DNA of 57,486 bases from a virus, in IMG/VR virus record IMGVR_UViG_3300027704_000029, positions 1-57,486 of that record; one strand, 5' to 3'. The translations under genes were made by a program, and so were the position numbers. Every line of letters starts with the position of its first letter. Position 1 is the first letter of the stretch. The notes beneath the pieces were generated by a model, which did no database searches, was not told where the DNA came from, and was given only the letters and a program-made list of their open reading frames with translations. Below, one piece after another: positions 14,601-57,486 of the stretch.

Positions 14601-17600
14601 TTTATCCGTAATATATGTTCCTAGGAAATCTCCCTTAGAAACGCCATCTCTATCTTCTTTGGAATAAAGAAAATCTCCATCAATATCATTCCCGTCTTTA
14701 TCTTTCTTTGTTTCTTTTTCGTTCAAGATCTTGAGCAACTGTTCCTTTGCGGTACCTTTTTTTGGATCGTCTTTAAGCTCAGCAACAGTTCTAGTTTTGC
14801 CATCAACATTTTTAGTACCATTAATCATCTTAGTAACATTAGCAACTGTCTTATCATAAACCTCACCTTGCTTTTGCTCAACTACAGACTCAGATATCTT
14901 AGCATCAATTTTTTCTATTTGCAAGTCAATTTCACCGTGAAAGCTTGGATCTTGTTTTTTCTTTAACTCCGTTAACCTCATCTTTTCAGCAAGGTCAGCT
15001 AGTTGTTCGTTTGTAACGTTTTCTGGAGCTATGTTTAAAGCTAACTTAACGTTGTTTACATAGTTTTTAGTCTTGATGATATTAGCTATCTCTCCCTCGT
15101 AAGCTGCTACAGCATCCGTGTCACCGTCTAGCTTAGCTTTTTCTAGTTTTACATTTAACTCAGAACCCATCATATTTATGGTCTTCATGTACTCACCAGT
15201 ATCTCCTTTTAACTGATTTATAACATTATTCTGAACTCCTTTAAAATCTGCCTTCGCACCAACAGCTCCCATACCACCAGACAACCACACGGTGTCATGT
15301 ATCAGTTTAAAGTGATTATTAATATCTGTTGACTCCATAGTATGAGCAAGTCCAAAAGTTGCCTTAGCGACATCCCCAAGCACCATCTCAGCCTCCTCTT
15401 CAATAACTTCCTTAACAACGTTTTCACCCCATCTCTTACCAGCAAACATTATACCCTCTCTTGTAGTAAACTGTTTTAGCGTACCAGCAAAACCTTCTTT
15501 CATAACTTTATCAATAACACCAGCTTTGAAAAACTCTGCATCTGGCATTATCATTTGAACCATACCTGTTATAGTACCTATAGTACCACCATAAAGAGAT
15601 GCTTGTAGTGGGTTTAACCCTAAAGCTTTACCCTCCAAAGTATTATCCATAGCCGTTAAGCGGAAACCAGTTTGAGCAGCTCTAATTTTGTTAGCAAAAT
15701 CTACATCTAAAAGTTTCTTACCAATAGTCTTAGTAAACATACCTGGTTTAAAAGCTTCTTTACCAGAAGATGCGGCTATTGCTAGCATAAAAGGTAGACC
15801 CTCGGCTATAGCTTGTGATCCTTTTGAAAAGAAACCTTGTTCACCTTCTTCATAGTCACCAGCCTGTGCTTTACCAAAGTGATCATAGTTGGTATATTTC
15901 TCATACATAGCATTTAAACCATCTAAACGGCTATATCTTTCATCACCACCACTTATAGCACCACCTGTTACGCCATCTAAAAGGTTTAAACCCCATAGGC
16001 TTGTTCCAGTATAGTATTTAGCGCCAGTATTTACTAAGCCTTGAGCGAGTGTTGAGTATGTATCTATGTCTAAAAAGCCTTTTGTTATCTTATTTTTCTT
16101 TCTCCACTCTTCGTATTCTTTTATACTACCGTAGTCACTACTGGTTTTCTTCATCATTCCATCCATCACCGTAAAACCATACTCACCCATTATCTCTTGG
16201 CGCTCGGTAGCAGCGGTCTCGTACTCTGACTCAAACCTTTTTAGGTTATTATTAAACTCCTCGCTAGTTAAGTTAAACTTATCACCGTCAGCTTGTAGTA
16301 TCTCTCCTTCTTTCTGTAGCTCTTCGTATTTCTTGAATGTTGCTCCAGATGATTTAACGAAGTTGTTATAAGTAGCAAGCTCTTTCTCGTAATCCTTTAT
16401 TTTACCGTTATATATATCAACTTCTTCTTGTGTTGTTGGTTCTGGTAAACCCTGTAGTTCTTCCTGCAAAGCTACTAGCGAATCTTCTTTTAATAGTTTC
16501 TCTCCCTCTATTTCTTCTAACTTCTGTATAACTGGGTTCATCTTGCCATTGAAAGCGGTAACTCTACCATCTAGCGCTTCTTGTTCTTTTACTATATCTT
16601 TCTTTCTCTTATTAACCAGTACTAGCTCGTCTTGATTTTTTCTATCATTCCTGTCAAGGTGCCTTGATTTTTGCTTAAGAAGCTTAAGTTTGATAGCATC
16701 TACGTGAGCTTCTTTTTTCTGTGAGTTCCATAAAGTGTTTTCCATACCTACGTCATCACCATTTGTTCTCATACCAGATAACTCCTGAATTTGTGGTGTC
16801 GTTAAACCATCTAGTAGCTTATACCAATCTTCTTCGGGTAACCACTTAAATTTATCGGTTATGTCCTCTACACTTCCGTCATTACTATAACCTTCCTTAA
16901 CATCCCTCATTAAATTAGCTATAGCAGCCGCATCAATCTCCTTTTGGGTATGCTTTTTATATTCATCTGAACCCCAATCTTGCTTCAGTTTTTTCTTAAA
17001 GTCCATCTCCTCACCAGATATTGTAGACACAACAGCATCGATAGGTGTAGCTAAAAGCGATAATGTTAATGCAGCAACACTAGGAGCTTCTTGAGCCTCA
17101 TTTTCTTGTATACCTTCACTGTCAGTTATACCTTGATATTCTTCTATATCTTTTAAGTTTCCAGCGCCAACACCTGTGTTATATTGATTTCTAACGCGAT
17201 CTAAACCATCTTTCCACTCTGGAGAACCTTCTTCTATACCTTCGCTTTTCATGAAACTAGCATGTTGGTCTAACTTACCCTTTAGTTCTTCATTGTACTT
17301 GTCAGCTTTTTTAGCAGTCTTAACACTAGTCTGATCAAACTCATTGTCTCGCTTGTCGTAAGTATAGTTAGCTAGTTCTGCTGTTTTTTCAATGTGAGCA
17401 TTAGACATAACCGGTAAAGCAGCTATATCTTTTTCTAAACTTAAAATCTTAGTGTCAGTGCCTTCAGTGGCTGTTGAGTTATTGTAAGTTGGTAAACTCA
17501 TTGCAACCTCGTCTACTTCAGCATTTGTAAGTGGTTCTTCACCCTCTAGAGAACTGTTCATCTCCCTACCTTTGTCAACCCACTTATGTAGATTAGTCAT

Positions 17601-18200
17601 CATCTTGTCATCACCCGTGTTGCTACCTGGGTTTATTTCATGCTTTCTTCCAAACTCATCTGTAACAACTATAGTATCGTTAGTACCCCATTCGTTTTTA
17701 ATCTCAAACTTTAGTTTGTCATTTTTGTAAGACTTCTCTAAGTTGGCTATAAAACCAGTTTCTTTATCACCAAAAACACTGACATCGGAAGTGTCATTCA
17801 ATTGATCGAGAGTTATATGTCCCACTCTCTCTTGCTCTTTCTCGTAACGTTTATCTGCCTCTTCAAGTGTTTCTGTTACTACTGGGGTATTTGTATTAGG
17901 CTTAACAGATGTGCTCTCAGCAACTGCTGTTGGTGGTTGGTCCACCAAGCTTTGCTCTTGCTCTTTCTCTTTAGTTTCTTTTTTCTCCACACCTTTAACT
18001 TCTTCGATAACCTTCTCCTCTTTTGGTATAACTTTAGGAGCTGGAGTTGGCTTCAAGTAACTAGCTATTCTCTTAGCTTGATCTTGAGCCTCAGCGTCTT
18101 TAGCTTTATTTTTTTTATAAGCATCTATAACGGCTGTGATTCTTTCGTGTGACTCACCAGCACTATGCATTTGCTTTATAACTTCTTGGATACTAGCCAT
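8649..18200 (-). CDS. Giant polyvalent virion protein with zincin and HAD motifs
   Basis: 3183 residues, the longest gene here. In order: a Lys/Glu-rich N-terminus with long charged helices; hydrophobic Gly/Ala segments around 740-880; a zinc-metallopeptidase motif AHEFLHD near residue 1225; an HAD-type phosphatase module with VLDFDDTLATT (~2285), VLTARP (~2361) and FADDA (~2419); a helical region with a DDDDEDDKKK patch near 2985; and a Cys/His C-terminus (CSGIKQ...RCKNKT...CYAH) like short zinc ribbons on nucleases. This matches the large polyvalent protein theme described for phages and conjugative elements, in which one ejected polypeptide carries several activities. It follows the 604-aa internal virion protein, so delivery with the DNA is likely. 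No transglycosylase motif was found. Confidence 0.9.
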   Translation of the reverse strand: MASIQEVIKQMHSAGESHERITAVIDAYKKNKAKDAEAQDQAKRIASYLKPTPAPKVIPKEEKVIEEVKGVEKKETKEKEQEQSLVDQPPTAVAESTSVKPNTNTPVVTETLEEADKRYEKEQERVGHITLDQLNDTSDVSVFGDKETGFIANLEKSYKNDKLKFEIKNEWGTNDTIVVTDEFGRKHEINPGSNTGDDKMMTNLHKWVDKGREMNSSLEGEEPLTNAEVDEVAMSLPTYNNSTATEGTDTKILSLEKDIAALPVMSNAHIEKTAELANYTYDKRDNEFDQTSVKTAKKADKYNEELKGKLDQHASFMKSEGIEEGSPEWKDGLDRVRNQYNTGVGAGNLKDIEEYQGITDSEGIQENEAQEAPSVAALTLSLLATPIDAVVSTISGEEMDFKKKLKQDWGSDEYKKHTQKEIDAAAIANLMRDVKEGYSNDGSVEDITDKFKWLPEEDWYKLLDGLTTPQIQELSGMRTNGDDVGMENTLWNSQKKEAHVDAIKLKLLKQKSRHLDRNDRKNQDELVLVNKRKKDIVKEQEALDGRVTAFNGKMNPVIQKLEEIEGEKLLKEDSLVALQEELQGLPEPTTQEEVDIYNGKIKDYEKELATYNNFVKSSGATFKKYEELQKEGEILQADGDKFNLTSEEFNNNLKRFESEYETAATERQEIMGEYGFTVMDGMMKKTSSDYGSIKEYEEWRKKNKITKGFLDIDTYSTLAQGLVNTGAKYYTGTSLWGLNLLDGVTGGAISGGDERYSRLDGLNAMYEKYTNYDHFGKAQAGDYEEGEQGFFSKGSQAIAEGLPFMLAIAASSGKEAFKPGMFTKTIGKKLLDVDFANKIRAAQTGFRLTAMDNTLEGKALGLNPLQASLYGGTIGTITGMVQMIMPDAEFFKAGVIDKVMKEGFAGTLKQFTTREGIMFAGKRWGENVVKEVIEEEAEMVLGDVAKATFGLAHTMESTDINNHFKLIHDTVWLSGGMGAVGAKADFKGVQNNVINQLKGDTGEYMKTINMMGSELNVKLEKAKLDGDTDAVAAYEGEIANIIKTKNYVNNVKLALNIAPENVTNEQLADLAEKMRLTELKKKQDPSFHGEIDLQIEKIDAKISESVVEQKQGEVYDKTVANVTKMINGTKNVDGKTRTVAELKDDPKKGTAKEQLLKILNEKETKKDKDGNDIDGDFLYSKEDRDGVSKGDFLGTYITDKNGNKTLVINKEASKGTGDGVNVAAHEFLHDMMQTTFAQKDANGDVVRDQDGNIKIDKKKAIAIGGQLADWVVNSGVGVSPTLTNRMSQYNDQGNEVQFQEIMTILSDSMVSGDMKFEEGPFTKLGDIMRRGLQKAGVPVKFNTGKDVFNFIKDYNKSVENGNLSQAQKDVYNKGAIIGKDMQKEIDSSAVYDLAMEKDPQTKRDMLASMEVDPFSTDGKALLKSKPSNVEGLLNKYDGNKRKMISETLMRTKDGRSVMELKNNRGEYAEDNFFKSEFGQEIAPITETITKRLFDPIPDNLRAGNTRAKFLNELTVIASTLVEREFDPTKQNIDKFISNRLNLRANKLASDLGIESTVEEGGLGATVGLDKAAELTAEESGPITESTPGFVLLKRIASPETILKIQKKIRSKIKGTTIEVEPGVFVDIAKLNYKTLKNLVASEVAGIFGIKSVENYLSPTKTLKNDDVIRARMFIAKQASALKASLPLGITASGTATGTKQVIIKNFYTKSETRAKYDPKEGGAGIFPQIKNTMSDDQFTAPFGVIKGELTNVKGQNPATLISGLMDEVGKTITNQTVRQELDANNNGSDKEVAARIRLLGDGKSDAMYSLAGDINKIGKSNQIQFFDKVNTLSGNNLTVKDGNVTNALRVKFAEEIENGVYDVKGQTTAQFINKIGKRLQVIHDMYTRDGSVSTNFVFDGKSVADMVIEQFKDDASEDTVRYKSIVGDIDGLTTPEGEQSARLAAKDVAARLREKGWSESDIKKFFRDGLSANTQTGTGVRVYLDGSVSTYKLAPILDKKGKKKSFRNRFSFGSTSDMDALLGTADVDVENNYDSGDLRAYERPKTGEGIPSEKNMKNIVAEQQEANQKLKELTEVLTELYQDNKKISASDVVAILQAHNANPRGLTRMAAVLDFIPTGAYADYKGEFRLEHMTPALQINLSALNQIINPSAENNANFNDMMDGYKVAYLPMKYDNMVNKHYKSDTPVYANAKTPSIVRYYNLEMPGFDLEMKQLSTGQTVGASFVFDQAQQKLMRKNNTKAVGGSKLYFSKASDSDFEMNRKNRIVDKAVKESRLAREPRGITVLDFDDTLATTKSMIRYTKPDGTKGKLNAEQYASQFENLTELGYEWDFSEFNEVVKGQLAPLFNKAMKLQGKFGPENMFVLTARPAAAAAAINSFLNQHGLNIPMENITGLGNSTAEAKALWIAEKVGDGYNDFYFADDALQNVQAVQNMLDQFDVKSKVQLARKTLYSKASDTFNEILEDSQGINRNATFSDAKAQKRGANVGNWGIFIPASAEDFKGLIYKFLGKGKKGEQQLQWFKDTLMNPFARATQEMDKLKSRLSNDYNALNKRFPNTKKMLDKTVPTGDFTYDTAIRVYNWVKAGREVDGLSKKDSADLIKAVEQNPEMIAYAAALEQVTNGYPEPGDYWMTETIASDLNNMTEGPGRKALLQEFTQNREAIFGTWQNGKLVGPNMNKIEAVYGAKFRNALEDMLWRMENGTNRNFGDNALTNRFANWVNNSVGAIMFFNARSAVLQTLSTANFINWDFNNPLRAAQAFANQPQFWKDFSMIFNSDMLKQRRDGLRSSVSHAELAEAASNSKNPAKAVFQKLLKLGFLPTQIADSFAIASGGATFYRNRVNDLMKKGMSEVEAKSKAFTEFQQKAEETQQSSRPDMISQQQASPLGRLVLAFQNTPMQYTRLMKKAIMDIANGRGDMKHNISKIIYYGAVQNMIFSSLQKAMFAFAFDDDDEDDKKKQRKKEISMANGMLDSLLRGMGVGGAVVSTLKNMILKFAEENQKGWNADYDKVILEFLNLSPPIGSKARKLKSGFSTLQFNREVIDYMPKNTLDNPMWEVIGNIVSATTNIPLDRVINKTNNVREALNSDNAAWQRIALALGWNRWDVDVENDARNEAKESVEAIKVKARKQKEKDKKEAAKKKEAAEKKAKGIREVQCSGIKQKGKGSRCKNKTENKSGKCYAHQ

Positions 18201-30495: not shown

Positions 30496-31350
30496 TTACT
30501 TCATTTGTTTTTCAATAGAAATCAATGCTTCCATACCTTCGTCAGTTTTAAACCAAGCGGCTAAAGCTGAGTACGGATGCTCCTCAAAAGGAACATTCAA
30601 TAATCTTCTACCATTAGAAGCGTAGTTTACTGTTCTTTGATCAGAAGATATAGCTAGTATACCCATCTCAACAGCTTTTATACCAACATTTCTAAGGTGT
30701 ATATTCTCATCATTCATCAACTCTAAGAACAATCCTGGTTTAGACTTTGCAAATATAAGCAAATCTCTTTTGAGCTCCTTAGAACTCATGCTAGATACTT
30801 TAGATCCATTCTCAACTCTCATTACAGCTTCTGCCATATTGATGTCCATGTTTCTAGCTGCTATCATCGCATCTAATTGCCAGTTAATAATTTCTAAATC
30901 ATCAGCAGCCTCAACTTGTGGTTTTACTTCATCCCAAGTTTTTCCAGCTTGCGGGTGATATATTGACATGATTTTTTGTAAGATAACCTTATTCTTTGGC
31001 ACGTGTAAAACACCTGCTCTAAAAATAACTCTACCTGGTCGTACAACTCCTTTGAATTCATCTACAAAAACTGTATTTTGATTTTCAGCGTATTGTACTT
31101 CTCTTTCATAACCAGCTACCTCATCAAACCATCTCAAGTTTTTAACTCCAATCATGAAGCTTAAAGGTCTTCTCTCACTTACTAAAACGTAGGTTCTGTC
31201 TTTGATCTCCCAATCGTTAATAATTCTTTTTTTTGGTTCTGTTCTCACATTAACCGGTGGTGCCTCCGTAACTGGAGTTTTTACCACTACTGTTTCTACA
31301 TGCTCATCTCCAGGATCTCCTGCATAAGCTTTTGCTTGTTTTTTTGCCAT
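30496..31350 (-). CDS. Head-associated hypothetical protein
   Basis: 284 residues between the major capsid gene and the neck genes. The first ~45 residues are disordered and rich in Val, Pro and Lys; the middle is beta-like (RVIFRAGVLHVPKNKVILQK) and the C-terminal half helical (RVENGSKVSSMSSKELKRDL). It is separated from the capsid gene by a strong terminator, so its level is probably lower than capsid. Likely a head completion or decoration protein; no family is recognised. Confidence 0.7.
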   Translation of the reverse strand: MAKKQAKAYAGDPGDEHVETVVVKTPVTEAPPVNVRTEPKKRIINDWEIKDRTYVLVSERRPLSFMIGVKNLRWFDEVAGYEREVQYAENQNTVFVDEFKGVVRPGRVIFRAGVLHVPKNKVILQKIMSIYHPQAGKTWDEVKPQVEAADDLEIINWQLDAMIAARNMDINMAEAVMRVENGSKVSSMSSKELKRDLLIFAKSKPGLFLELMNDENIHLRNVGIKAVEMGILAISSDQRTVNYASNGRRLLNVPFEEHPYSALAAWFKTDEGMEALISIEKQMK

Positions 31351-31373
31351 AATATAATATAATATAAGTTAAT

Positions 31374-31402
31374 AAAAAAAGGGGAAGGAGTTTTCCTCCC
31401 CC
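31374..31402 (-). terminator. Intrinsic terminator behind the major capsid gene
   Basis: Read on the - strand: GGGGAGGA, a short AAAC loop, then TCCTTCCCC (8 pairs, one bulged base) followed by seven T. It lies ~25 bases after the capsid stop codon, the usual place for a partial terminator that keeps capsid message abundant. Confidence 0.88.
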
Positions 31403-31427
31403 TCTTAAAGTTATAGGTTGCTATCGA

Positions 31428-32888
31428 CTATGCGTTAGTACCTTTTAGTAAAAAGAAGTTATTAGCTCCTTGTACAACTAGACATCTTTCAGATAAGAAG
31501 TGCATTTCCATCGCATCTAAATCAGAAGTAGTAGCGCCAACTGAACCAGTAGTCCAAGTTTTGTACTTTCTACTTTCCATTTGAGAAGCTCTGTATCTTA
31601 CGTGTAAGAATGGTCTCTTAAGGTTTTTCCCTAAGTTTTGATCGTATACTGAAGAAACTCCAGCAGGAATCATAACTCCGTGAATTGCATTAACAGCATC
31701 AGTACCATTAATCAAACCTCTTGTAGAAGAATCATTAAGGTATTTGAAGTCAGACTTGTAAAAGTCATAAGAACCTCTTCTGAAACCAGTAAATCCTAAG
31801 TTAAGTGCCATGTCCTCTTCGTTGTTAAACACACCGTAAGAAGTACCACCTTGAGCACCATCAGATAAACCAGCTAACATGTCATCTACTTGTAAAGACG
31901 CTCCTCTATCTAAGAACATCATGTTCTCTTCAATAGCACCATTTTTATCTAGTTCAGCTAACATTAAGTCGAACTCAGCAAGTAAAGCACCAGTTCCATC
32001 AAAAGCATTAGTTATGTTACCTCTAGTTTCTAGAGCTTCCCATAAACCTTCAGTACCTTGAACTTTACCACCACCAGCAGCACTTGGCATAACGATACCT
32101 GCAGCAACTGTTTTCTCTGACTCCATCATTGACATCTCTAAGTAATCTGAGAAACGAGCTTTAGTATCACCAGAAGCTTTTAAGTACCACATGTAACCAT
32201 TCTGTCCTTCTTCACCAGAAACCTCAACCCATCCAATAGCAGATGCATCAGATCCTGATACTTCATACTTATCTTTCAAGATAATTGGTCTGTTAGTTCT
32301 AGACGTGAATTGTGGTTTGTTAGCTCCAGTTCTACCTATAGAACCTTTAGCAAAGTTTGATCCAAATACTAGAATCGAAACATTACCAGCAGCTAAATTT
32401 CCTGAAGCTATATTTGCGTCGTCAAAACGTAATATAGTACAAACTCCAGAAGCAGCTACAGCAGTAACGTAACATCTAGTAGTAGAATCAGCATCAGATA
32501 CTAAGATCATGTCACCAGCACGAACACCGTGATTAGCTCCAGTCATTGCTTTTCCATCAGCATCAGTTGATGCAGTAAAAGTAAGTGTTCCTACTTTTGA
32601 AGCTGCAGTTAAAGCAACAGTCTTGTAAGATAAATGTAATCTACCTTGCTCTGACCAAATCACTTGATCAGCAGACATAGACTCTTCAGCTCCTACTTGT
32701 GAAAGAAATCCTGAGATAGTTCTGTTTCCAAAAACCTCAGCTTCTTTTTCCATAAGATCTGGTAAATATTGTTGCGCCCAGTTAGCACTATTTGCTCCCG
32801 CGTTAGCGAAGTCAATATAGTTCTCCTGCAACGCCTGTTTAGTTGGTGCTGGTGTTATTCCAGCAGCCGGTACAGATGTAATTGCCAT
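31428..32888 (-). CDS. Major capsid protein
   Basis: 486 residues beginning MAITSVPAAGITPAPTKQAL, then a helix-turn region with NWAQQYLPDLMEKEAEVFG. It lies downstream of the portal and scaffold genes and has its own strong terminator, the normal arrangement for the major capsid gene. Composition is balanced with many Ala and Gly, and there is a C-terminal LSERCLVVQGANNFFLLKG strand. No protease gene is recognised nearby. The call rests on order, size and the expression signals, not on a specific motif; the shell fold is presumably HK97-like. Confidence 0.82.
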   Translation of the reverse strand: MAITSVPAAGITPAPTKQALQENYIDFANAGANSANWAQQYLPDLMEKEAEVFGNRTISGFLSQVGAEESMSADQVIWSEQGRLHLSYKTVALTAASKVGTLTFTASTDADGKAMTGANHGVRAGDMILVSDADSTTRCYVTAVAASGVCTILRFDDANIASGNLAAGNVSILVFGSNFAKGSIGRTGANKPQFTSRTNRPIILKDKYEVSGSDASAIGWVEVSGEEGQNGYMWYLKASGDTKARFSDYLEMSMMESEKTVAAGIVMPSAAGGGKVQGTEGLWEALETRGNITNAFDGTGALLAEFDLMLAELDKNGAIEENMMFLDRGASLQVDDMLAGLSDGAQGGTSYGVFNNEEDMALNLGFTGFRRGSYDFYKSDFKYLNDSSTRGLINGTDAVNAIHGVMIPAGVSSVYDQNLGKNLKRPFLHVRYRASQMESRKYKTWTTGSVGATTSDLDAMEMHFLSERCLVVQGANNFFLLKGTNA

Positions 32889-32924: not shown

Positions 32925-34010
32925 TTACTTTCTTTTTCTTACTCTTAGCTTCATATCGTTACCACTTTCTCCTAGAACTTTAAACTTCATACCTCCTTCA
33001 CCTTCATAAACTTTATGAGACTCTCTAGATGTGTTGATATTCTTTGATTCAGCAACTGATGTCTTTATAGCATCAGATTTGCCTTGTTCGTAAAAATGCT
33101 TAGCTATTGCGTCAGGGTTCATAGCGGTGAACAATCCTTTGTGATAACCAGCAGCATCTTCCATAACAGAATCTTTGTCTAGGAACTTCCCAACAAAATT
33201 GTTTATGTCTAACTGTGTAGTTTTCACCTTCTCAATGTCCTGAACATTGTAGCTCATCTCCTTGTCACCGACTTTAAACTTAAAACCATCAAAATCTTTA
33301 TTAAAGACTTTTTCAGTTTTGTTTAAAAACTTAGACTGTTGATTCTCTACCATCTTCGTGTTCTCTTCTTCCTGAACGTTATACTTATTTGCGAAATCAA
33401 TAGCATCTCTTTGCTCGGTTGTGAGCTTCGAACCTGCTTTGATCTCTTCGTAATATTTAGATTTTGACTCTTCTAAGTGAGTTCTAGCCTCAGCAACTTG
33501 CTCTTTTAAGGCTAACTTTTTTCTTTTAACATCTCTTTCTTCATCGACATCTTCGTCGTAAGAGAATTGATCTTCCATAAGGAAGTTAATTTCTTCTGCA
33601 TCTAAATGCGGTTTTGTTTTCTTGTAGTAATCTTGCATTACATCGGCATCATCCATTTCTTTGATGTCTGTGTTTAGCTTTACGTAATCGTTAAAGTCTC
33701 CACCAGTTTCCTCCATGAAGTCCATTAGTTTTTGAACATTCTCTGGTATATCTACTATGTCACTTGGTTGTTCTTCAACAACCTCATCCTCAACAAACTC
33801 TTCTACTACTTCTTCTACTGTTTGTTCTTCAGCAACTGGTTCTTCTACGGTTTCCTCTACTACTTCTTCAACCGGTTCTTCTGCTGGTATCTTTGACATA
33901 TCGATTTTAATGTCACCATCTTCATTGTATGATATTGGTGATTCTTGCTCTGTAGTTTCTTCTACAGGATCTTGTGTAACTTCTTCAGCTACTTCTTTGT
34001 TTTCTTCCAT
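32925..34010 (-). CDS. Scaffolding protein
   Basis: 361 residues, highly acidic. The first ~95 residues are long Glu/Val/Pro runs (VEEVVEETVEEPVAEEQ), then come coiled-coil helices (KKLALKEQVAEARTHLEESK) and a basic C-terminus (LRVRKRK). An acidic, helical protein with a basic tail between portal and capsid genes is the standard picture of an internal scaffold, the basic tail binding the capsid shell. It would leave or be cleaved on maturation. Confidence 0.8.
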   Translation of the reverse strand: MEENKEVAEEVTQDPVEETTEQESPISYNEDGDIKIDMSKIPAEEPVEEVVEETVEEPVAEEQTVEEVVEEFVEDEVVEEQPSDIVDIPENVQKLMDFMEETGGDFNDYVKLNTDIKEMDDADVMQDYYKKTKPHLDAEEINFLMEDQFSYDEDVDEERDVKRKKLALKEQVAEARTHLEESKSKYYEEIKAGSKLTTEQRDAIDFANKYNVQEEENTKMVENQQSKFLNKTEKVFNKDFDGFKFKVGDKEMSYNVQDIEKVKTTQLDINNFVGKFLDKDSVMEDAAGYHKGLFTAMNPDAIAKHFYEQGKSDAIKTSVAESKNINTSRESHKVYEGEGGMKFKVLGESGNDMKLRVRKRK

Positions 34011-34030
34011 GATAAAATAATATTAAATAA

Positions 34031-36436
34031 TTAGTTACTTGATAATCCAGAAACTCCCATTCCATTTCCTAATGAGTCGTTACCAGATGATTCAAAGTTT
34101 TTGGGCTCTTTTACATCTTTCTTCTGTGCTATTAAATTGCTTTGTTCAGACGCTTTTATTTTCTCTCTATCGTCTTTACGATCGTCCTTTTGAGATTCTT
34201 TTCCTTTAGCAGCCTCGTTGTCTAGGTTTCTAAGCTTCATGTTTATTTCAAACTCATGATCCATTAACTTTATTTTCATCTCAGCTTCTGCGTTCATATA
34301 CTGAATCTTCATTCCGTTTCTTTTTTCCTCCATTTGCATATCACCCTCCATTTTAGCTTGGTTTTTCTGAGTCTCTGCTTGCGCTGCTGCTTGTGCTGTT
34401 TGTTGTTGTGATTCTCCTTGAGCTTTAATATTTTGTTGTTGCATTGCTTGTTCTCTCTCAAGCTTCTTTTTCTTCTTATACTTAAGTAGTTGGTTTGCCA
34501 TTTTAAGGTTCTTAACCTGACGAACATCTATTGCGTCATCAACATCTAAAGCTTTTTGCTGTATAGCCATTTGTATGTTTTGCTCTAGCATAGCTTTCTC
34601 CTCTTCATCTGGAGCTAAGTCAATAAATATACCAAATTCATAAAGATGTAACTCTGACATCTCTTTTAGTGTAGCTACGTTGTGAGCACCGATTTGCTGT
34701 ATAAAAGCTTCTTTTGTCGGTGAGTATTCTATTATATCAGATATTCTTAATGATAGTTGCTCTGCAACTTCTACTGTTAAGAACAAACCAGCATCTAATA
34801 TATGTCTAGTTGCAACATTTGAGTTTGCTGCAGCTAGTTTTTGTATACCTACAAGTGATCTAGAATCTGGTGTAGAAGCGTCTCTAGCTTCGTTAAGACC
34901 AGTTACATCTCTAATCATCTGTAGATAGTAGTTATAGTTACCTATAAGTGCTTGTAATTTATTACCTACTCCAGCTCCATTTGAAATTTCTTGAATAGGA
35001 ATTTTAGCGGCATTTTGATCACCTTCTCCAGTGTAACTTCTACCAACAACAGAACCTGTTTGAAAGAACATGTTTAAAGCTTCTTGAGCATTGTAATTTG
35101 TTCCGTTACCTAAATCAACTTCAGCTAATCCATCTACATCTAAAAACACACCGTCAGGTACCATTCTGGACAATACTTGCTGTATCTTCAAGTGTGTAAG
35201 CTGTATCATATCAGCAAAAGAAGTAACTCTACTAACTAGCGACTCTATTTTACCATTATACATCTTAGGTGCAACTATAGAGTAATTCATCTTGACCTTA
35301 GTCATATCACTCTTCTCTCTCATCATGTTCTCAGCTTTCTGCCACTTTATCAAATGCTTAGTACCTAATACTATAGCTCCTTCAAATAAACACTCTGTAG
35401 TTTTTTCTAATCTTTTGTAATCAGCAGCATCGGTTGGTGGTAAGAAAGTATCATCTCTCTTTATAGATCTTTCAGATCCAGAGTTTGTCGCCTTAACTTT
35501 ATAAACATCATTCATGTATGTCTTATAGTTAAAGTACATAACAGCTACTTTGTTCTTATCGTTACCTCCATTAAAACCAGGTACAGCATACATACTAGCG
35601 TACTTACCTGTTATTTCTTTTAAAGCGTATTGATCAAGGTGTGGAAACTCTTTAGCTAACTCGTTAATTGGTATATACTTAACCTCACCAACGTAGTATA
35701 TATCTTCAAAGTAAGGAGAATCTGTATACGAATAAACTAAGTTTGCTGGGTCAACGTACTCTACTTTTGCTCCTTCAGACCAATTGAAACTTGTTTTTGT
35801 AGCACCTATACCTAATACGGTTAGATCTTCTAATACTCTTCTTCTTATTAAATCATACTTGCAACCATCGAGCAATGTGTTTATAGCGGTTTCATTTGCA
35901 ACCTCAACAGCTTGCTTGTAAGTTAATTGCATGTGTAACTCTAACTCTTCTTTATTTTCTGGTAACTCAGAAGGATCATTCTCATACATGTCTACATTTA
36001 AGTTTTGCTTAGCTGTATCATTAAACTCCTTTGTTTGCATGTCAGCTATCATACTATCCATGTACTTTGTTCTTTTAGAAACTCCGTACTGATCTTGTGA
36101 GTATGATTTTATGTCATAACCTCTACCAGCCATACCATTAACAACTATATCCACAAACTTAGGTATAATCGGAACTGGCGTCCAGTCTAAATTAAGATAA
36201 GATAAATCACCATTTATAGATAACTCATCTTTATATTTTTGTATTGATTGTTCTCCCCTAGCATATAATCTAAGGTTGTGAAACTTCCTTGCTGAGTTAG
36301 AGCTTCTACTTTGAGCAGGACCATCGAACCATTCCAGCTCTATAGCTTTAGCTACCTTCAATCCATACTCCTTAGAGCTCTTTTCAGAATCACTAACTAC
36401 TTGGGAAGGAAAATTTTTATGTACAGACTCTGCCAT
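34031..36436 (-). CDS. Portal protein
   Basis: 801 residues in the position between terminase and scaffold. It has a helical N-terminal region, TPVPIIPKFVDIVVNGMAG (residues ~85-103) and DVTGLNEARDASTPDSRSL (~510), a stretch conserved in P22-like large portals, then a long charged C-terminal coil rich in Gln, Lys and Glu (barrel and crown region). Length fits P22-type portals (~725). It forms the DNA channel at one head vertex. The terminase gene ends two bases before its start. Confidence 0.87.
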   Translation of the reverse strand: MAESVHKNFPSQVVSDSEKSSKEYGLKVAKAIELEWFDGPAQSRSSNSARKFHNLRLYARGEQSIQKYKDELSINGDLSYLNLDWTPVPIIPKFVDIVVNGMAGRGYDIKSYSQDQYGVSKRTKYMDSMIADMQTKEFNDTAKQNLNVDMYENDPSELPENKEELELHMQLTYKQAVEVANETAINTLLDGCKYDLIRRRVLEDLTVLGIGATKTSFNWSEGAKVEYVDPANLVYSYTDSPYFEDIYYVGEVKYIPINELAKEFPHLDQYALKEITGKYASMYAVPGFNGGNDKNKVAVMYFNYKTYMNDVYKVKATNSGSERSIKRDDTFLPPTDAADYKRLEKTTECLFEGAIVLGTKHLIKWQKAENMMREKSDMTKVKMNYSIVAPKMYNGKIESLVSRVTSFADMIQLTHLKIQQVLSRMVPDGVFLDVDGLAEVDLGNGTNYNAQEALNMFFQTGSVVGRSYTGEGDQNAAKIPIQEISNGAGVGNKLQALIGNYNYYLQMIRDVTGLNEARDASTPDSRSLVGIQKLAAANSNVATRHILDAGLFLTVEVAEQLSLRISDIIEYSPTKEAFIQQIGAHNVATLKEMSELHLYEFGIFIDLAPDEEEKAMLEQNIQMAIQQKALDVDDAIDVRQVKNLKMANQLLKYKKKKKLEREQAMQQQNIKAQGESQQQTAQAAAQAETQKNQAKMEGDMQMEEKRNGMKIQYMNAEAEMKIKLMDHEFEINMKLRNLDNEAAKGKESQKDDRKDDREKIKASEQSNLIAQKKDVKEPKNFESSGNDSLGNGMGVSGLSSN

Positions 36437-53492: not shown

Positions 53493-53608
53493 ATGTCCCA
53501 AAAAAAATTTGTTAAAAATATAGAGATGTTATGCTGCTCCCCCCTATACTGGCCACCACCCCCTAGTAAAAGTCAACTTATTTGGCCGGCCTAGCCACTT
53601 TCTATGTT

Positions 53609-53645
53609 AATATTATCCATTTGTATTCGTTTTTGCTTTGTATTT
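53609..53645 (-). promoter_or_regulatory. Promoter-like element on the - strand
   Basis: Read on the - strand: TACAAAGCAAAAACGA, nine bases, GATAATATT. This matches the + strand elements (TACAATGTAA-TACGA-N9-GATAATATA) except AACGA for TACGA. It faces the tag-family and structural genes, whose first start is ~220 bases downstream. Confidence 0.6.
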
Positions 53646-53660
53646 AACATTTAACATTTA

Positions 53661-53697
53661 TTTTACAATACTAATACGACTGATCATTGATAATATA
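53661..53697 (+). promoter_or_regulatory. Promoter-like element copy 1
   Basis: TTTTACAATACTAA then TACGA (53675-53679), nine bases, GATAATATA (53689-53697). Followed by TATGTAACAAGA, which also follows copy 2. The spacing between the two blocks is identical in all copies. Confidence 0.7.
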
Positions 53698-53751
53698 TAT
53701 GTAACAAGAAACAAACAAACAGTTTAACATTTCAAGTTACTAAATAAAGAA

Positions 53752-53788
53752 TTAAACAATGTAAATACGAGTCAATAATGATAATATA
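53752..53788 (+). promoter_or_regulatory. Promoter-like element copy 2
   Basis: TTAAACAATGTAAA then TACGA (53766-53770), nine bases, GATAATATA (53780-53788), followed by AATGTAACAAGA. The intervening nine bases differ from copy 1, so the two blocks are selected while the spacer is free. Confidence 0.7.
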
Positions 53789-53816
53789 AATGTAACAAGA
53801 GAACGTTAAGAACACA

Positions 53817-53891
53817 ATGTCACAATCATTAGCAACTATCATGAACAGTGAAGTCGCGGGCAAGGGGTGTAGTCGATCGTATAGCACATAA
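53817..53891 (+). CDS. Possible 24-aa leader peptide
   Basis: A short open frame (begins MSQSLATIMNSEVAGKGC) between promoter-like copies 2 and 3, after AAGAACACA. It is locally richer in GC than its surroundings. It could be a chance frame; only its position after a promoter-like element and the A-rich leader speak for it. Confidence 0.22.
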   Translation: MSQSLATIMNSEVAGKGCSRSYST

Positions 53892-53904
53892 ACAATAGTA
53901 GTAC

Positions 53905-53941
53905 TTTTACAATGTAAGTACGAATAGTTAAAGATAATATA
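53905..53941 (+). promoter_or_regulatory. Promoter-like element copy 3
   Basis: TTTTACAATGTAAG then TACGA (53919-53923), nine bases, GATAATATA (53933-53941). It stands 25 bases before the ATG of the first rightward gene. Confidence 0.72.
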
Positions 53942-53966
53942 AGTATAAATAAATAAATAATTAAAT

Positions 53967-54212
53967 ATGAAGAATGAAAACAAAGTTGAAGAACTTAAAA
54001 CTAAGAGATTTGTAGTAAGAAAGTCGTTAATTGGAAAGAATGTAGTATTCAGTTTCACTAACAAAAAAGGAGTAGAAGTAAAGTATAATCATGATAAAGT
54101 ATATGATATTATGAAGTCAAAGTTAGAAACTCTACCATGCTGGATTAAGTACAAGTCGTATACTGCTACTAATAACATACCATTAGTGTGTAGAAATCTA
54201 GAGTTAGTATAG
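53967..54212 (+). CDS. Early-type hypothetical protein (81 aa)
   Basis: First gene of the rightward block, starting after AAATAAATAAATAATTAAAT, the typical leader here. The product is basic, with strands VVFSFTNKKGVEVKYN and SLIGKNVVF and a C-terminal part containing TLPCWIKYKSYT. No family recognised. Position directly behind promoter-like copy 3 suggests early expression and a host-takeover or regulatory role; this is inference. Confidence 0.72.
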   Translation: MKNENKVEELKTKRFVVRKSLIGKNVVFSFTNKKGVEVKYNHDKVYDIMKSKLETLPCWIKYKSYTATNNIPLVCRNLELV

Positions 54213-54279
54213 TAATATACACTCAAAAGTATAGTCGTAGTTCCACTTGTTTAGCGACTCTAAATAATACGAATGAGTA

Positions 54280-54320
54280 TGTAGTTATGGTAGGCAGGTG
54301 AGTTCGATTCTCATACTACA
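54280..54320 (+). other. tRNA-like mini structure (acceptor-like stem plus T-arm)
   Basis: TGTAGT (54280-54285) pairs with ACTACA (54315-54320). Immediately inside the 3' strand is a perfect T-arm: GTGAG, loop TTCGATT, CTCAT (54298-54314), matching the invariant TTCRANY pattern. Only about 12 bases separate the 5' stem strand from the T-arm, including GGTAGGCA, which recalls a D-loop, so the anticodon arm is absent. Either a decayed tRNA, a processing or decoy element, or a tRNA 3'-end attachment core; no integrase is present in the window. Confidence 0.5.
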
Positions 54321-54335
54321 ACTAAATAAATAATT

Positions 54336-54383
54336 ATGGGTGAATTCCGATACAAACAAAAAGTAAAAATATGTTCAAAGTAA
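54336..54383 (+). CDS. Possible 15-aa peptide
   Basis: MGEFRYKQKVKICSK, directly after AAATAAATAATT, a very typical start context here. It overlaps the start of the next gene. It may be a leader that couples translation; its shortness makes the call weak. Confidence 0.25.
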   Translation: MGEFRYKQKVKICSK

Positions 54384-54586
54384 AAGAAAATGATATATTC
54401 GCTAAGAATATGAGTGGCGCAGAGCTACACGAAACAACTAAGCTATTCCAGCAAGGTCCGAAGTATACACAACGACCAGCAGAAAAGCCGGGCGGAATGA
54501 TACTACTCGAGTTAATAGAAGCAGAGAGAGAGATGGATAGTTTCCTTGGTGATTTAATAGCCAAAAATGGCATAACAAAGTATTAA
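54371..54586 (+). CDS. Early-type hypothetical protein (71 aa)
   Basis: 71 residues, begins MFKVKENDIFAKNMSGAELH, then a helical C-terminus (GGMILLELIEAEREMDSFLG). No motif recognised. The next gene begins one base after its stop (TAATATG). Real by context and coding look; function unknown. Confidence 0.68.
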   Translation: MFKVKENDIFAKNMSGAELHETTKLFQQGPKYTQRPAEKPGGMILLELIEAEREMDSFLGDLIAKNGITKY

Positions 54587-54587
54587 T

Positions 54588-54875
54588 ATGAGCGTGTCTA
54601 GAGAAGAGTTAAAGAGAATGTGGCTAAGTATACCACACGGTAAACAAAGTCCGCCAGAACGCACGATAGTAGTAAGATTTGACAAGTATGAAGGTCGTAA
54701 AGGACAAGGTACAGTGACGATCACTCGCGATGGCGATGGTGGATTCAGTCAGTTCAGTACTCATCAAGTAAAACCGATCGAGTATGTACTAAACAAAATG
54801 AAAGATAAGTGTGACAATAGATTAGAGTACGATATAAACTATGATTACAGTAAATACAGACTAATAATTAAATAA
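54588..54875 (+). CDS. Early-type hypothetical protein (95 aa)
   Basis: 95 residues, mixed alpha/beta and basic: an N-terminal helix (SREELKRMWLSI), then TIVVRFDKYEGRKGQGTVTI strands. No family recognised. Its stop is followed after two bases by the signal-peptide gene, so the genes are in one message. Confidence 0.68.
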   Translation: MSVSREELKRMWLSIPHGKQSPPERTIVVRFDKYEGRKGQGTVTITRDGDGGFSQFSTHQVKPIEYVLNKMKDKCDNRLEYDINYDYSKYRLIIK

Positions 54876-54877
54876 AT

Positions 54878-55177
54878 ATGAAGAAAATAACATTAAGTGT
54901 AGCAGCACTAGCAATTGCGATCAGTAGCTATGGTCAAACAAATAGCCAAGAATATAACAAGCAGAAGAAAGACTTCATGTCATTTGAGTACCAAATACTC
55001 GACTTGATAGATGCAGTGAGAATGGACATGTACTATGGTTACTTACAACAAGATAAAGGTATGTACTATATCAACGAAATGGTGAAATTACAAGCGCGAA
55101 ATCGAGATATGATGGCTGACTCTTACAAACTATTTAGTATAGGTGAAGACATGACAAGAATAGACAATAATTTATAA
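54878..55177 (+). CDS. Small exported early protein
   Basis: 99 residues with a clear signal peptide (KKITLSVAALAIAISSYGQ, cleavage likely before Q). The mature ~80 residues are helical and rich in Met, Tyr and Asp (DLIDAVRMDMYYGYLQQDKG). Exported small proteins in early phage blocks are often superinfection-exclusion or envelope-modifying factors; that is inference. It overlaps the next start by one base (ATAATG). Confidence 0.78.
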   Translation: MKKITLSVAALAIAISSYGQTNSQEYNKQKKDFMSFEYQILDLIDAVRMDMYYGYLQQDKGMYYINEMVKLQARNRDMMADSYKLFSIGEDMTRIDNNL

Positions 55178-55431
55178 TGAGTAGAAAGATAATAATAGAC
55201 AAGTACGAGAACAACACTCACTACAGCATAACAGTAGTAGATAAGTATAATCAAAAGTTCCACCTTGGTTACGAACGATCACTAGATAACACAGTATTAA
55301 GTAAGTATGAACAACTCGCTTGTGATATATGGGCGCATGAAGTGTATAATACACCAAGTTTAATGGATAAAGCGATCGCACAATGTATAGAAATAGACAT
55401 AGCGAATGGTAAAGAACCATCACTAGACTAA
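55177..55431 (+). CDS. Early-type hypothetical protein (84 aa)
   Basis: 84 residues, beta N-terminus (RKIIIDKYENNTHYSITVVD) and helical C-terminus (LMDKAIAQCIEIDIANGKEP). Stop and next start share one base (TAATG). No family recognised. Confidence 0.68.
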   Translation: MSRKIIIDKYENNTHYSITVVDKYNQKFHLGYERSLDNTVLSKYEQLACDIWAHEVYNTPSLMDKAIAQCIEIDIANGKEPSLD

Positions 55432-55508
55432 TGGGAGCGTGGATAGTTTTAGCAGCGATAACTGCTATGATGGCAAGACACTTATTAAGTGAGTATATAG
55501 ACAACTAA
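55431..55508 (+). CDS. Single-helix membrane peptide (25 aa)
   Basis: MGAWIVLAAITAMMARHLLS then EYIDN. A hydrophobic helix of ~18 residues that could span or lie on the membrane. It is translationally coupled to the preceding gene through TAATG and stands just before promoter-like copy 4. Short, but coupling and composition support it. Confidence 0.5.
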   Translation: MGAWIVLAAITAMMARHLLSEYIDN

Positions 55509-55542
55509 TACGATATAAATACGATAAAAGTTGGATAATATA
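55506..55542 (+). promoter_or_regulatory. Promoter-like element copy 4
   Basis: TACGA (55520-55524), nine bases (TAAAAGTTG), GATAATATA (55534-55542). The upstream block is weaker (AATACGATATAAA). It lies 18 bases before the ATG of the zinc-ribbon gene. Confidence 0.65.
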
Positions 55543-55560
55543 TGTATAAAAACAAACAAT

Positions 55561-55809
55561 ATGTACAGAAACGAAGAAGAATATGAGTTTTTCAACTCAA
55601 CAAGATGTAAGTGTGACGAAATAATACCAATACAAAGAGTTCAACTTGGCCATCAAGTATGTGTCGACTGCTCCACAGTAGAAGCGTATGGCTGTGCTCC
55701 ACTAATTAACCATAAAACGGGTAATTCTATCCAGATTATGTCAAGTAGTGATGCAAGAAAGATAGCTAAGCTGACTCAACGTAGAGGTTATGGCACAATG
55801 TTAGGATAA
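55561..55809 (+). CDS. TraR/DksA-like zinc-ribbon protein (82 aa)
   Basis: Start chosen at ATG 55561 behind AAAAACAAACAAT; a TTG at 55531 would place the start inside the promoter-like element. TRCKCDEIIPIQRVQLG and CVDCST give CxC-x15-CxxC with I-P-x-x-R between, like the C4 finger of TraR/DksA proteins, which bind the RNA polymerase secondary channel. The rest (SSDARKIAKLTQRRGYGTML) is helical. A transcription-modulating role is plausible but not shown. Confidence 0.72.
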   Translation: MYRNEEEYEFFNSTRCKCDEIIPIQRVQLGHQVCVDCSTVEAYGCAPLINHKTGNSIQIMSSSDARKIAKLTQRRGYGTMLG

Positions 55810-55949
55810 TGAAGCTTACTAATAAACAAAAGCGAGGTGTAAGGAGACGAGTAGATCTTGAAACCGGTGTAAAATGCACCCACACTCGTGTGTTTGTTAG
55901 TAAAAAAGTATACACAAGAAAAAAGAAACATAAACAATGGAAGAAATAG
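55809..55949 (+). CDS. Very basic small protein (46 aa)
   Basis: Begins MKLTNKQKRGVRRRVDLETG and ends VYTRKKKHKQWKK. It starts inside the stop of the preceding gene (TAATG). More than a third of residues are Lys or Arg, so it may bind nucleic acid. No family recognised. Confidence 0.6.
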   Translation: MKLTNKQKRGVRRRVDLETGVKCTHTRVFVSKKVYTRKKKHKQWKK

Positions 55950-56095
55950 ATCAAAAACTAGATCACTGGATACACAATAGCCTGATCAAAGCAGAAATAC
56001 GTAAAGTAATAGAAAAACATATACTTAACGAGAAGGGAGAGGCTTTTAAAGCTGGTTGGACAAAAGGAGCGTTAAACATAATAAATAATAAATAG
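55937..56095 (+). CDS. Small helical protein (52 aa)
   Basis: Begins MEEIDQKLDHWIHNSLIKAE, acidic at first and then ...KAGWTKGALNIINNK. It overlaps the previous frame by 13 bases, with ATG in the A-rich context AAACA. No motif recognised. Confidence 0.58.
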   Translation: MEEIDQKLDHWIHNSLIKAEIRKVIEKHILNEKGEAFKAGWTKGALNIINNK

Positions 56096-56098
56096 TAT

Positions 56099-56263
56099 AT
56101 GAATAAGAAATGGATCACCGTATTAGATTACGAAACAAGTAGGGTATACCAATACCGAGTAGCAATCAATAAACATGCTGAAGAGTACATAGCATTTAAA
56201 GGACATCGACTAAAAGATGTAGAGTGGATGGAACACCAAAACAGCAAGCCAATTACAAACTAA
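56099..56263 (+). CDS. Small alpha/beta protein (54 aa)
   Basis: Begins MNKKWITVLDYETSRVYQYR; strands then a helical end (GHRLKDVEWMEHQNSKP). It starts three bases after the prior stop and ends just before the TACGA block of promoter-like copy 5. No family recognised. Confidence 0.6.
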   Translation: MNKKWITVLDYETSRVYQYRVAINKHAEEYIAFKGHRLKDVEWMEHQNSKPITN

Positions 56264-56287
56264 ATACGATAACCAAAAGATAATATT
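56251..56287 (+). promoter_or_regulatory. Promoter-like element copy 5
   Basis: TTACAAACTAAA then TACGA (56265-56269), nine bases, GATAATATT (56279-56287). The next ATG starts only three bases later (56291), so a message starting here would be nearly leaderless. Confidence 0.62.
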
Positions 56288-56290
56288 AAC

Positions 56291-56476
56291 ATGAATACAA
56301 TAAAACATTTAAACAACGACTACATACAGCTTGGTCAACTGATTTACAAACCATACAAAGTATGTGATCTACCTCAAAACTTCGGTTGTATCGAGTTTAA
56401 CGAGAAAGAAGGCGTAAGCGAATGGTTCAACTACAAAGGCTTCACATACCTTTTCGATAAAATGGCTAAATCATGA
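56291..56476 (+). CDS. Early-type hypothetical protein (61 aa)
   Basis: 61 residues with an aromatic, beta-rich make-up (YIQLGQLIYKPYKVCDLPQN, WFNYKGFTYLF). Its start lies directly behind promoter-like copy 5. The end overlaps the next start (ATGA). No family recognised. Confidence 0.66.
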   Translation: MNTIKHLNNDYIQLGQLIYKPYKVCDLPQNFGCIEFNEKEGVSEWFNYKGFTYLFDKMAKS

Positions 56477-56792: not shown

Positions 56793-57386
56793 ATGAATAA
56801 ACACGAAAGATACGTAGAAGTATGTAAACAAATGGAATTACTAGGCATCAAAGATGTTAGTACACAAAGACAAAAGAATAATGATACAAGAGTATGGCGA
56901 TTACCGATCAAAAACAAGTGGAAAAACGGTAGTTTCATTGAAGTAGCAAGTTTTACTACAGGTTACGTACGTAATCAAAATAGTGGTTATAGTAACTATC
57001 AGTTAAACAAAAGATGTCAAAGCGAGCCACAATACTATCCAGAATACAAGTGGTGTGATAAGAAAGGCGAAAGCTTACTAACGGGTAAATACAACATGTA
57101 TACCACCAAAGCTTGTGTGCTAATACCTAACGAAATAGATAGATTAGAATACTTAATAGCCTATTGTCTTAAAAACTATTACATCAAGCATGCTAACTTT
57201 GTAGCCGAAGGTGTTTATGTGTCTAAGTGGGAGCATGAGTATAAGTTGAAAGTACAAGACGCTCAATATGATTGTGGTCACTATGATAGAATCAAAGAGT
57301 TGGAAAGCGACGTACACAACTTAGAGAATAAGTTAGCAACAATAGAAAGAATAGCGAGCGATAGAAATAAATGGGAAAAGGAATAA
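56793..57386 (+). CDS. Early-type hypothetical protein with coiled-coil end (197 aa)
   Basis: The largest gene of this block. The N-terminal ~95 residues are polar and basic (VWRLPIKNKWKNGSFIEVAS, NQNSGYSNYQLNKRC); the middle holds DRLEYLIAYCLKNYYIKHAN; the last ~40 form a coiled coil (RIKELESDVHNLENKLATIE). It overlaps the next start by one base. No enzyme motif or family recognised. Confidence 0.72.
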   Translation: MNKHERYVEVCKQMELLGIKDVSTQRQKNNDTRVWRLPIKNKWKNGSFIEVASFTTGYVRNQNSGYSNYQLNKRCQSEPQYYPEYKWCDKKGESLLTGKYNMYTTKACVLIPNEIDRLEYLIAYCLKNYYIKHANFVAEGVYVSKWEHEYKLKVQDAQYDCGHYDRIKELESDVHNLENKLATIERIASDRNKWEKE

Positions 57387-57486
57387 TGGGTAAACAAAAT
57401 GAAAAGTTATTCGCTAATATAGATAATTACGAACAAGAAGTAAAAGAAAAGAAGAAAAAAACAAGACAAAAGCCTGTTAAAGGCAG
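57386..57486 (+). CDS. Start of a gene cut by the window end
   Basis: Begins MGKQNEKLFANIDNYEQEVK and continues with a run of Lys (EKKKKTRQKPVKG) to the last base. It overlaps the previous stop (TAATG). Too short to classify. Confidence 0.6.
   Translation, partial: MGKQNEKLFANIDNYEQEVKEKKKKTRQKPVKG

What the first reader, a model, noticed from the sequence alone, without database searches (positions are those of the whole stretch)
53661..56287. Repeated promoter-like element TACGA-N9-GATAATATW with fixed spacing
Five + strand copies (TACGA at 53675, 53766, 53919, 55520, 56265) each have exactly nine variable bases before GATAATAT(A/T), and four share an upstream TTWACAA(T) block 14 bases before TACGA. 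All lie just before small early-type genes. This is not the usual Bacteroidetes promoter (TTTG ... TAnnTTTG). Copy 1 also shares TAATACGACT with the T7 promoter, probably by chance since only TACGA is shared by the others. It may be read by a phage RNA polymerase or by a modified host enzyme.
Basis: seen in the sequence. Interest (0 to 1): 0.78.

Follow-up and report, generated by a model that had tools for sequence, protein, structure and literature searches.

The report
Phage sigma-factor promoter in uncultured phages
The repeated element is a real promoter shared by hundreds of uncultured, probably flavobacterial, viruses, and it is most likely read by a sigma factor that these viruses encode themselves to redirect the host's RNA polymerase.

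Summary
All five copies exist (none in shuffles), and a position matrix finds a sixth on the minus strand (53602-53643), back-to-back with copy 1. In 70 loci chosen by protein homology the exact element occurs 208 times forward and 4 times reverse, with one match in all at ten other spacings. The full element is TTACAAAcTAAATACGA-N7-TR-GATAATATA-N3-[R]. A purine lies 7 bases past GATAAT in 96-99% of sites and is often the A of the start codon: a -10 box plus start site.

Near-complete relatives with the element encode a sigma-70-family factor (TIGR02937 above cut-off; PHROG 351, E 1.6e-22) beside a conserved helix-turn-helix protein. Of 23 sigma-bearing records 22 carry the element; of 16 same-lineage records without sigma, none do. 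No T7-type RNA polymerase was found (T7 control positive). The window, a fragment, ends about 5 kb before where its closest relative has the sigma gene.

Best reading: promoters of a phage sigma acting with host core RNA polymerase, not a phage RNA polymerase. Phage sigma factors are known; this family, its promoter and its partner look undescribed (no relative among 50,697 phage records). Transcript ends, timing and binding are untested.

The parts
53663..53704 (+). promoter copy 1 (TACGA 53675, GATAAT 53689-53694, predicted start 53701)
53754..53795 (+). promoter copy 2 (TACGA 53766, GATAAT 53780-53785, predicted start 53792)
53907..53948 (+). promoter copy 3 (TACGA 53919, GATAAT 53933-53938, predicted start 53945), 22 bases before the ATG of the 81-aa gene
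55508..55549 (+). promoter copy 4 (TACGA 55520 with a second TACGA at 55509; predicted start 55546), before the zinc-ribbon-like gene whose first ATG is near 55561
56253..56294 (+). promoter copy 5 (TACGA 56265, GATAAT 56279-56284, predicted start 56291 = A of the ATG: predicted leaderless)
   Evidence: same back-to-back pair in G018 (9127-/9167+)
53967..54212 (+). 81-aa first gene of the rightward block, conserved beside the promoters in 70 viral loci
55531..55809 (+). open frame holding a small CxC...CxxC (zinc-ribbon-like) protein downstream of copy 4 (listed from a TTG; the likely start is the ATG near 55561); clusters with a protein in all five near-complete relatives first compared
57386..57486 (+). 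end of the fragment; in the collinear relative G018 the sigma gene lies about 5 kb beyond this point and is therefore not in the window

Best explanation
The element is a dedicated promoter of a large group of tailed phages (probably infecting Flavobacteriia or other Bacteroidota). Its parts, counted from the predicted start site (+1): box A TTACAAACT (-38 to -30), box B TACGA (-26 to -22, inside the spacer), -10 box GATAATATA (from -12), and a purine +1, often the A of AUG. It is read by host core RNA polymerase carrying a phage-encoded sigma-70-family factor of about 252 residues: sigma region 2 on GATAATATA and region 4 at box A, with box B as an auxiliary contact, made by sigma region 4 or by the adjacent, often overlapping, helix-turn-helix protein. 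Shown: the element, its grammar, its strand and position bias, the homology of the sigma, co-occurrence and gene adjacency. Inferred: transcription start, binding, which domain reads which box, early timing, and that the window's own phage carries the sigma in the part missing from this contig.
For: Motif; 208 forward/4 reverse with other spacings about zero in homology-selected loci; 635 forward/5 reverse in 142 sigma-selected loci. Start-site signature: purine at +1 in 96% of pattern-selected sites and 99% of 575 matrix-selected sites; ATG exactly at +1 for 72 of 569, 0 one base upstream and 5 one base downstream. Sigma: Pfam Sigma70_r2 5.8e-6, PHROG 351 1.6e-22, TIGR02937 over cut-off, SigA regions 2 and 4 in PDB 6.6e-10, AF2/Foldseek SigA 3.4e-6. 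Co-occurrence: 22/23 against 0/16 (90, 91); the 23rd has a diverged version. Coordinated drift inside one genome: G068, GATATT at all 10 sites found; G064, TACGT/TACGC (88, 91). No T7-type polymerase with T7 control. Host-type promoters about as frequent as in shuffled sequence upstream of sigma (15 against 11) and in the window (5 against 6.4) but enriched in the sigma-lacking relative Panino (18 against 7.4) (105; see also 55).
Against: No transcript, binding or proteomic data. The sigma, its partner and the promoter may travel together only because they mark one clade; the partner co-occurs almost as well (137 of 142 loci). Box B inside the spacer is not a usual sigma-70 contact. Sigma residue 220 is the column most associated with loss of box B, but the family-wise p is only 0.06. 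In most loci the sigma gene lies 2-3 kb downstream of a copy of its own promoter, so the first round of transcription needs another source. The window itself does not include the sigma gene.
Confidence: 0.75

Rival explanations
1. The promoter is read by host RNA polymerase with a host sigma (primary or alternative); the phage sigma serves other promoters, such as the late ones.
For: Early genes usually need host machinery; the sigma gene itself lies in the block driven by this element; the late block has its own different recurrent leader.
Confidence: 0.12
2. Promoter recognition is chiefly by the helix-turn-helix partner acting as activator on boxes A and B (an 11-bp direct repeat TACAA/TACGA on one face of the helix), with host or phage sigma contacting only the -10 box, as with T4 MotA or PhoB-type activation (comparison from general knowledge).
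For: 11-bp repeat geometry; partner gene adjacent to or overlapping sigma in most loci; either box can be lost in a lineage while the -10 stays.
Against: The partner has no recognisable activator family; box A sits where sigma region 4 would bind; the partner's covariation with box B is weaker than that of sigma.
Confidence: 0.1
3. Promoter of a phage-encoded RNA polymerase (T7-like or crAss-like virion enzyme).
For: TACGA-N9-G has the same register as the T7 promoter (-14..-10 and +1); giant virion-type proteins exist.
Against: PF00940 absent from 34 records while found in T7; DxDGD not conserved in the giant proteins; start codons and the purine signature place the start 12 bases past that G.
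Confidence: 0.02
4. Repressor operator, replication or packaging site rather than a promoter.
For: Repeated, directional, clustered near the divergent intergenic region.
Against: Copies precede successive small operons, on one strand, at a bounded distance from starts, with a -10 box and a purine start signature.
Confidence: 0.01

Closest known systems
Phage SPO1 gp28 / gp34 middle and late sigma factors
   Same: Phage sigma that redirects host core RNA polymerase to dedicated phage promoters
   Different: Different host phylum and promoter sequence; here the element lies across the rightward (replication-side) block, with a conserved partner gene, and the spacer carries an extra box
T4 gp55 with co-activator gp33
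   Same: Two phage proteins, a sigma-family factor and a partner, plausibly acting together on host core
   Different: T4 late promoters have only a -10 box and need the sliding clamp (general knowledge); here region 4 is present and there are upstream boxes
Bacteroidota primary sigma promoters (TTTG / TAnnTTTG)
   Same: Likely host background, A-rich leaders
   Different: Neither the -33 nor the -7 element is present; GATAATATA resembles the E. coli-type -10
T7 promoter
   Same: TAATACGACT in copy 1 and the TACGA-N9-G register
   Different: No T7-type RNA polymerase; the nine bases before the G are not conserved as in T7; start site predicted elsewhere

Membership tests
sigma-70 family (the encoded factor) | Region 2 and region 4 homology | tested here: met
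   Pfam r2 5.8e-6 over cut-off and r4 1.8e-4, the latter just below its curated cut-off; TIGR02937 53.3 bits over cut-off 42.9 (106); SigA regions 2 and 4 (49)
sigma-70 family (the encoded factor) | Sigma2-sigma3-sigma4 fold | tested here: met
   AF2 pLDDT 76 (moderate; domains loosely placed, so global TM-scores are low); Foldseek best hits are SigA chains, E 3.4e-6 (73, 78)
sigma-70 family (the encoded factor) | Binds core RNA polymerase and directs initiation | not testable with these tools
   needs biochemistry
sigma-dependent promoter | -10 hexamer with purine start about 7 bp downstream | tested here: met
   (sequence signature only)
sigma-dependent promoter | -35 element about 17 bp upstream of -10 | tested here: inconclusive
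   The CAAACT part of box A fits a 17-bp spacing, but conserved box B lies inside the spacer
T7-type phage promoter | Genome encodes a single-subunit RNA polymerase | tested here: not met
   PF00940 absent in 34 sigma-bearing relatives, present in T7; the window's own missing part could not be searched
Bacteroidota host promoter | TTG-N17-23-TAnnTTTG | tested here: not met
   absent from the element; no intergenic example in the window
crAss-like virion RNA polymerase system | Giant virion protein with a catalytic DxDGD-type motif | tested here: not met
   DIDGD in the window's 3183-aa protein is not conserved in relatives; a motif search only

The most novel reading that the evidence does not exclude
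The phage carries its sigma (and perhaps the helix-turn-helix partner) in the virion, so that host RNA polymerase is redirected to phage promoters from the first minute: these genomes show almost no intergenic host-type promoters, and the sigma gene usually lies downstream of a copy of its own promoter. The composite promoter, with two interchangeable boxes 11 bp apart, would then be a two-protein recognition system not described in phages.
Probability: 0.2. Interest if true: 0.8.

Novelty: new variant of a known kind. Interest (0 to 1): 0.64.

Why it matters
It links a sequence motif to a candidate reader across hundreds of uncultured viruses and offers a candidate orthogonal promoter/sigma pair for Bacteroidota. 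The motif predicts operons and start sites in otherwise unannotated genomes, and repeated loss of one box gives a natural experiment on how sigma and promoter co-evolve. It also raises a testable question: how transcription starts when the sigma gene lies behind its own promoter.

Tried and rejected
T7-type polymerase and giant virion RNA polymerase: no support. Motif as a host promoter: one genome scan gave nearly only single hits in unrelated phyla in the listed part. Isolates: no phage record encodes a sigma relative or the 81-aa protein. Host-type promoters near the sigma operon: not clearly enriched. Residue-level covariation of sigma or partner with motif variants: best hit sigma residue 220, family-wise p 0.06, so only suggestive. 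Partner fold: no PDB match. Literature on such promoters in Bacteroidota phages: none found in seven searches of the open library, which lacks most subscription journals.

Full report
Observation. The five TACGA-N9-GATAATAT copies are exact, all on the + strand and confined to 53675-56286; shuffled windows give none. The window is an IMG/VR record, a fragment of a podovirus-like phage whose terminase and capsid proteins are related to those of Elemovirus and Cellulophaga phages; the closest terminase in the phage collection is that of a 60.9-kb environmental genome, MW202828.

Extent. To avoid selecting on the motif I fetched 70 loci by homology to the 81-aa gene at 53967: 208 forward and 4 reverse exact copies, one match in all at ten other spacings from 4 to 14, and one match to the reversed control pattern. 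A 42-column matrix from these finds the five copies plus one on the minus strand at 53631, with none in shuffles. Back-to-back sites recur in the relative G018.

Grammar. Consensus TTACAAAcTAAATACGA-N7-TR-GATAATATA-wwTR. Box A (TACAA) and box B (TACGA) form an 11-bp direct repeat. Seven bases after GATAAT a purine occurs in 96% of sites chosen by pattern only and 99% of 575 unique matrix-chosen sites, usually after T; 72 of 569 downstream ATGs lie exactly there, none one base upstream and five one base downstream. This fits a -10 box and a start site, with some leaderless genes, copy 5 of the window included. It argues against the T7-like reading in which the G of GATAAT is +1.

Reader. Five near-complete motif-bearing relatives were compared with four motif-lacking ones (MW202828, elemoE, Panino, phi38:1). 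Genes found only in the first group include a 252-aa sigma-70-family protein and an adjacent 206-aa protein with a C-terminal helix-turn-helix. The sigma assignment rests on Pfam, PHROG, NCBIfam, PDB profile and fold searches. The partner, modelled at pLDDT 90, has no structural match. The pair is adjacent, mostly overlapping by 14 or 4 bases.

Association. Loci fetched by sigma homology, independent of the motif: 68 of 80 have sites, with 356 forward and 5 reverse; most of the 12 without are cut within about 2 kb upstream of sigma. Over all 142 sigma loci (2.2 Mb): 635 forward and 5 reverse. Among 39 whole records, 22 of 23 sigma-bearing ones carry the element; 0 of 16 sigma-lacking members of the same terminase lineage do, twelve of these picked by terminase similarity alone. 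Eight of those twelve are only 34-43 kb and may be fragments. The one exception among the 23, G066, carries a diverged form, TTGACACGA-N9-GATAATATA. Of the 39 viral records searched, 31 had sigma; six of the other eight are 50-52 kb and may be fragments.

Drift. In G068 all ten sites found read GATATT; in G064 box B is TACGT or TACGC; several lineages lose box B but keep box A and the -10. Loss of box B needs about 11 changes on the sigma tree. Such within-genome concerted change is expected if one phage-encoded factor reads all sites. The residue-level search points to sigma residue 220, in the region 4 helix-turn-helix, but only at family-wise p 0.06.

Rivals. No T7-type polymerase in 34 sigma-bearing records, with T7 found in the same search. 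Host-type promoters: 13 intergenic in Panino, none in the window or G021, up to 4 in the other sigma phages; upstream of sigma they are near shuffled frequency. The Flavobacterium consensus is taken from PMC6847099.

What is not shown. No experiment; timing, binding and start sites are inferred. Co-occurrence could reflect one clade. The window's own sigma is inferred from G018, collinear at 73.7% identity over 31 kb, where it lies about 5 kb beyond the homologue of the window's right end. Sigma usually lies 2-3 kb downstream of a copy of its own promoter, so how the cycle starts is open. The host is inferred from the hosts of related isolates only.

Known or new. Phage sigma factors are known (T4 gp55, SPO1 gp28 and gp34; PMC9429907). 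I found no description of this family or promoter, and no relative of the sigma among 50,697 phage records. I rate it a new variant of a known kind.

Noticed in passing
window 31350-31428 and 34010-34031 (minus strand): A second recurrent leader, like TTATTAAYT..TATTATATTATATYATG, sits directly before some structural genes here and in the five near-complete relatives; possible late promoter or translation element.
   Followed up: no
L215/L216 (Maribacter phage Panino): Sigma-lacking relative with 13 intergenic canonical Bacteroidota promoters, most 20-45 bases before genes.
   Followed up: partly
G002 and G016 records (loci L012, L078): Two sigma matches in one phage record each.
   Followed up: no
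L469 (G066): Sigma-bearing phage whose promoters lost box A and read AAAAAAGGTTGACACGA-N9-GATAATATAAATGTAACTAA.
   Followed up: partly
window 54275-54322: Sequence resembling the 3' half of a tRNA (GGTGAGTTCGATTCTCATACTACAA) that ARAGORN does not call.
   Followed up: no
window 8649-18200: 3183-aa giant virion-type protein with an HExxH-like motif and a HAD-like DFDDT stretch; no PHROG match and no RNA polymerase motif conserved in relatives.
   Followed up: partly
G011 (L069): Sigma gene appears frame-disrupted in this record.
   Followed up: no
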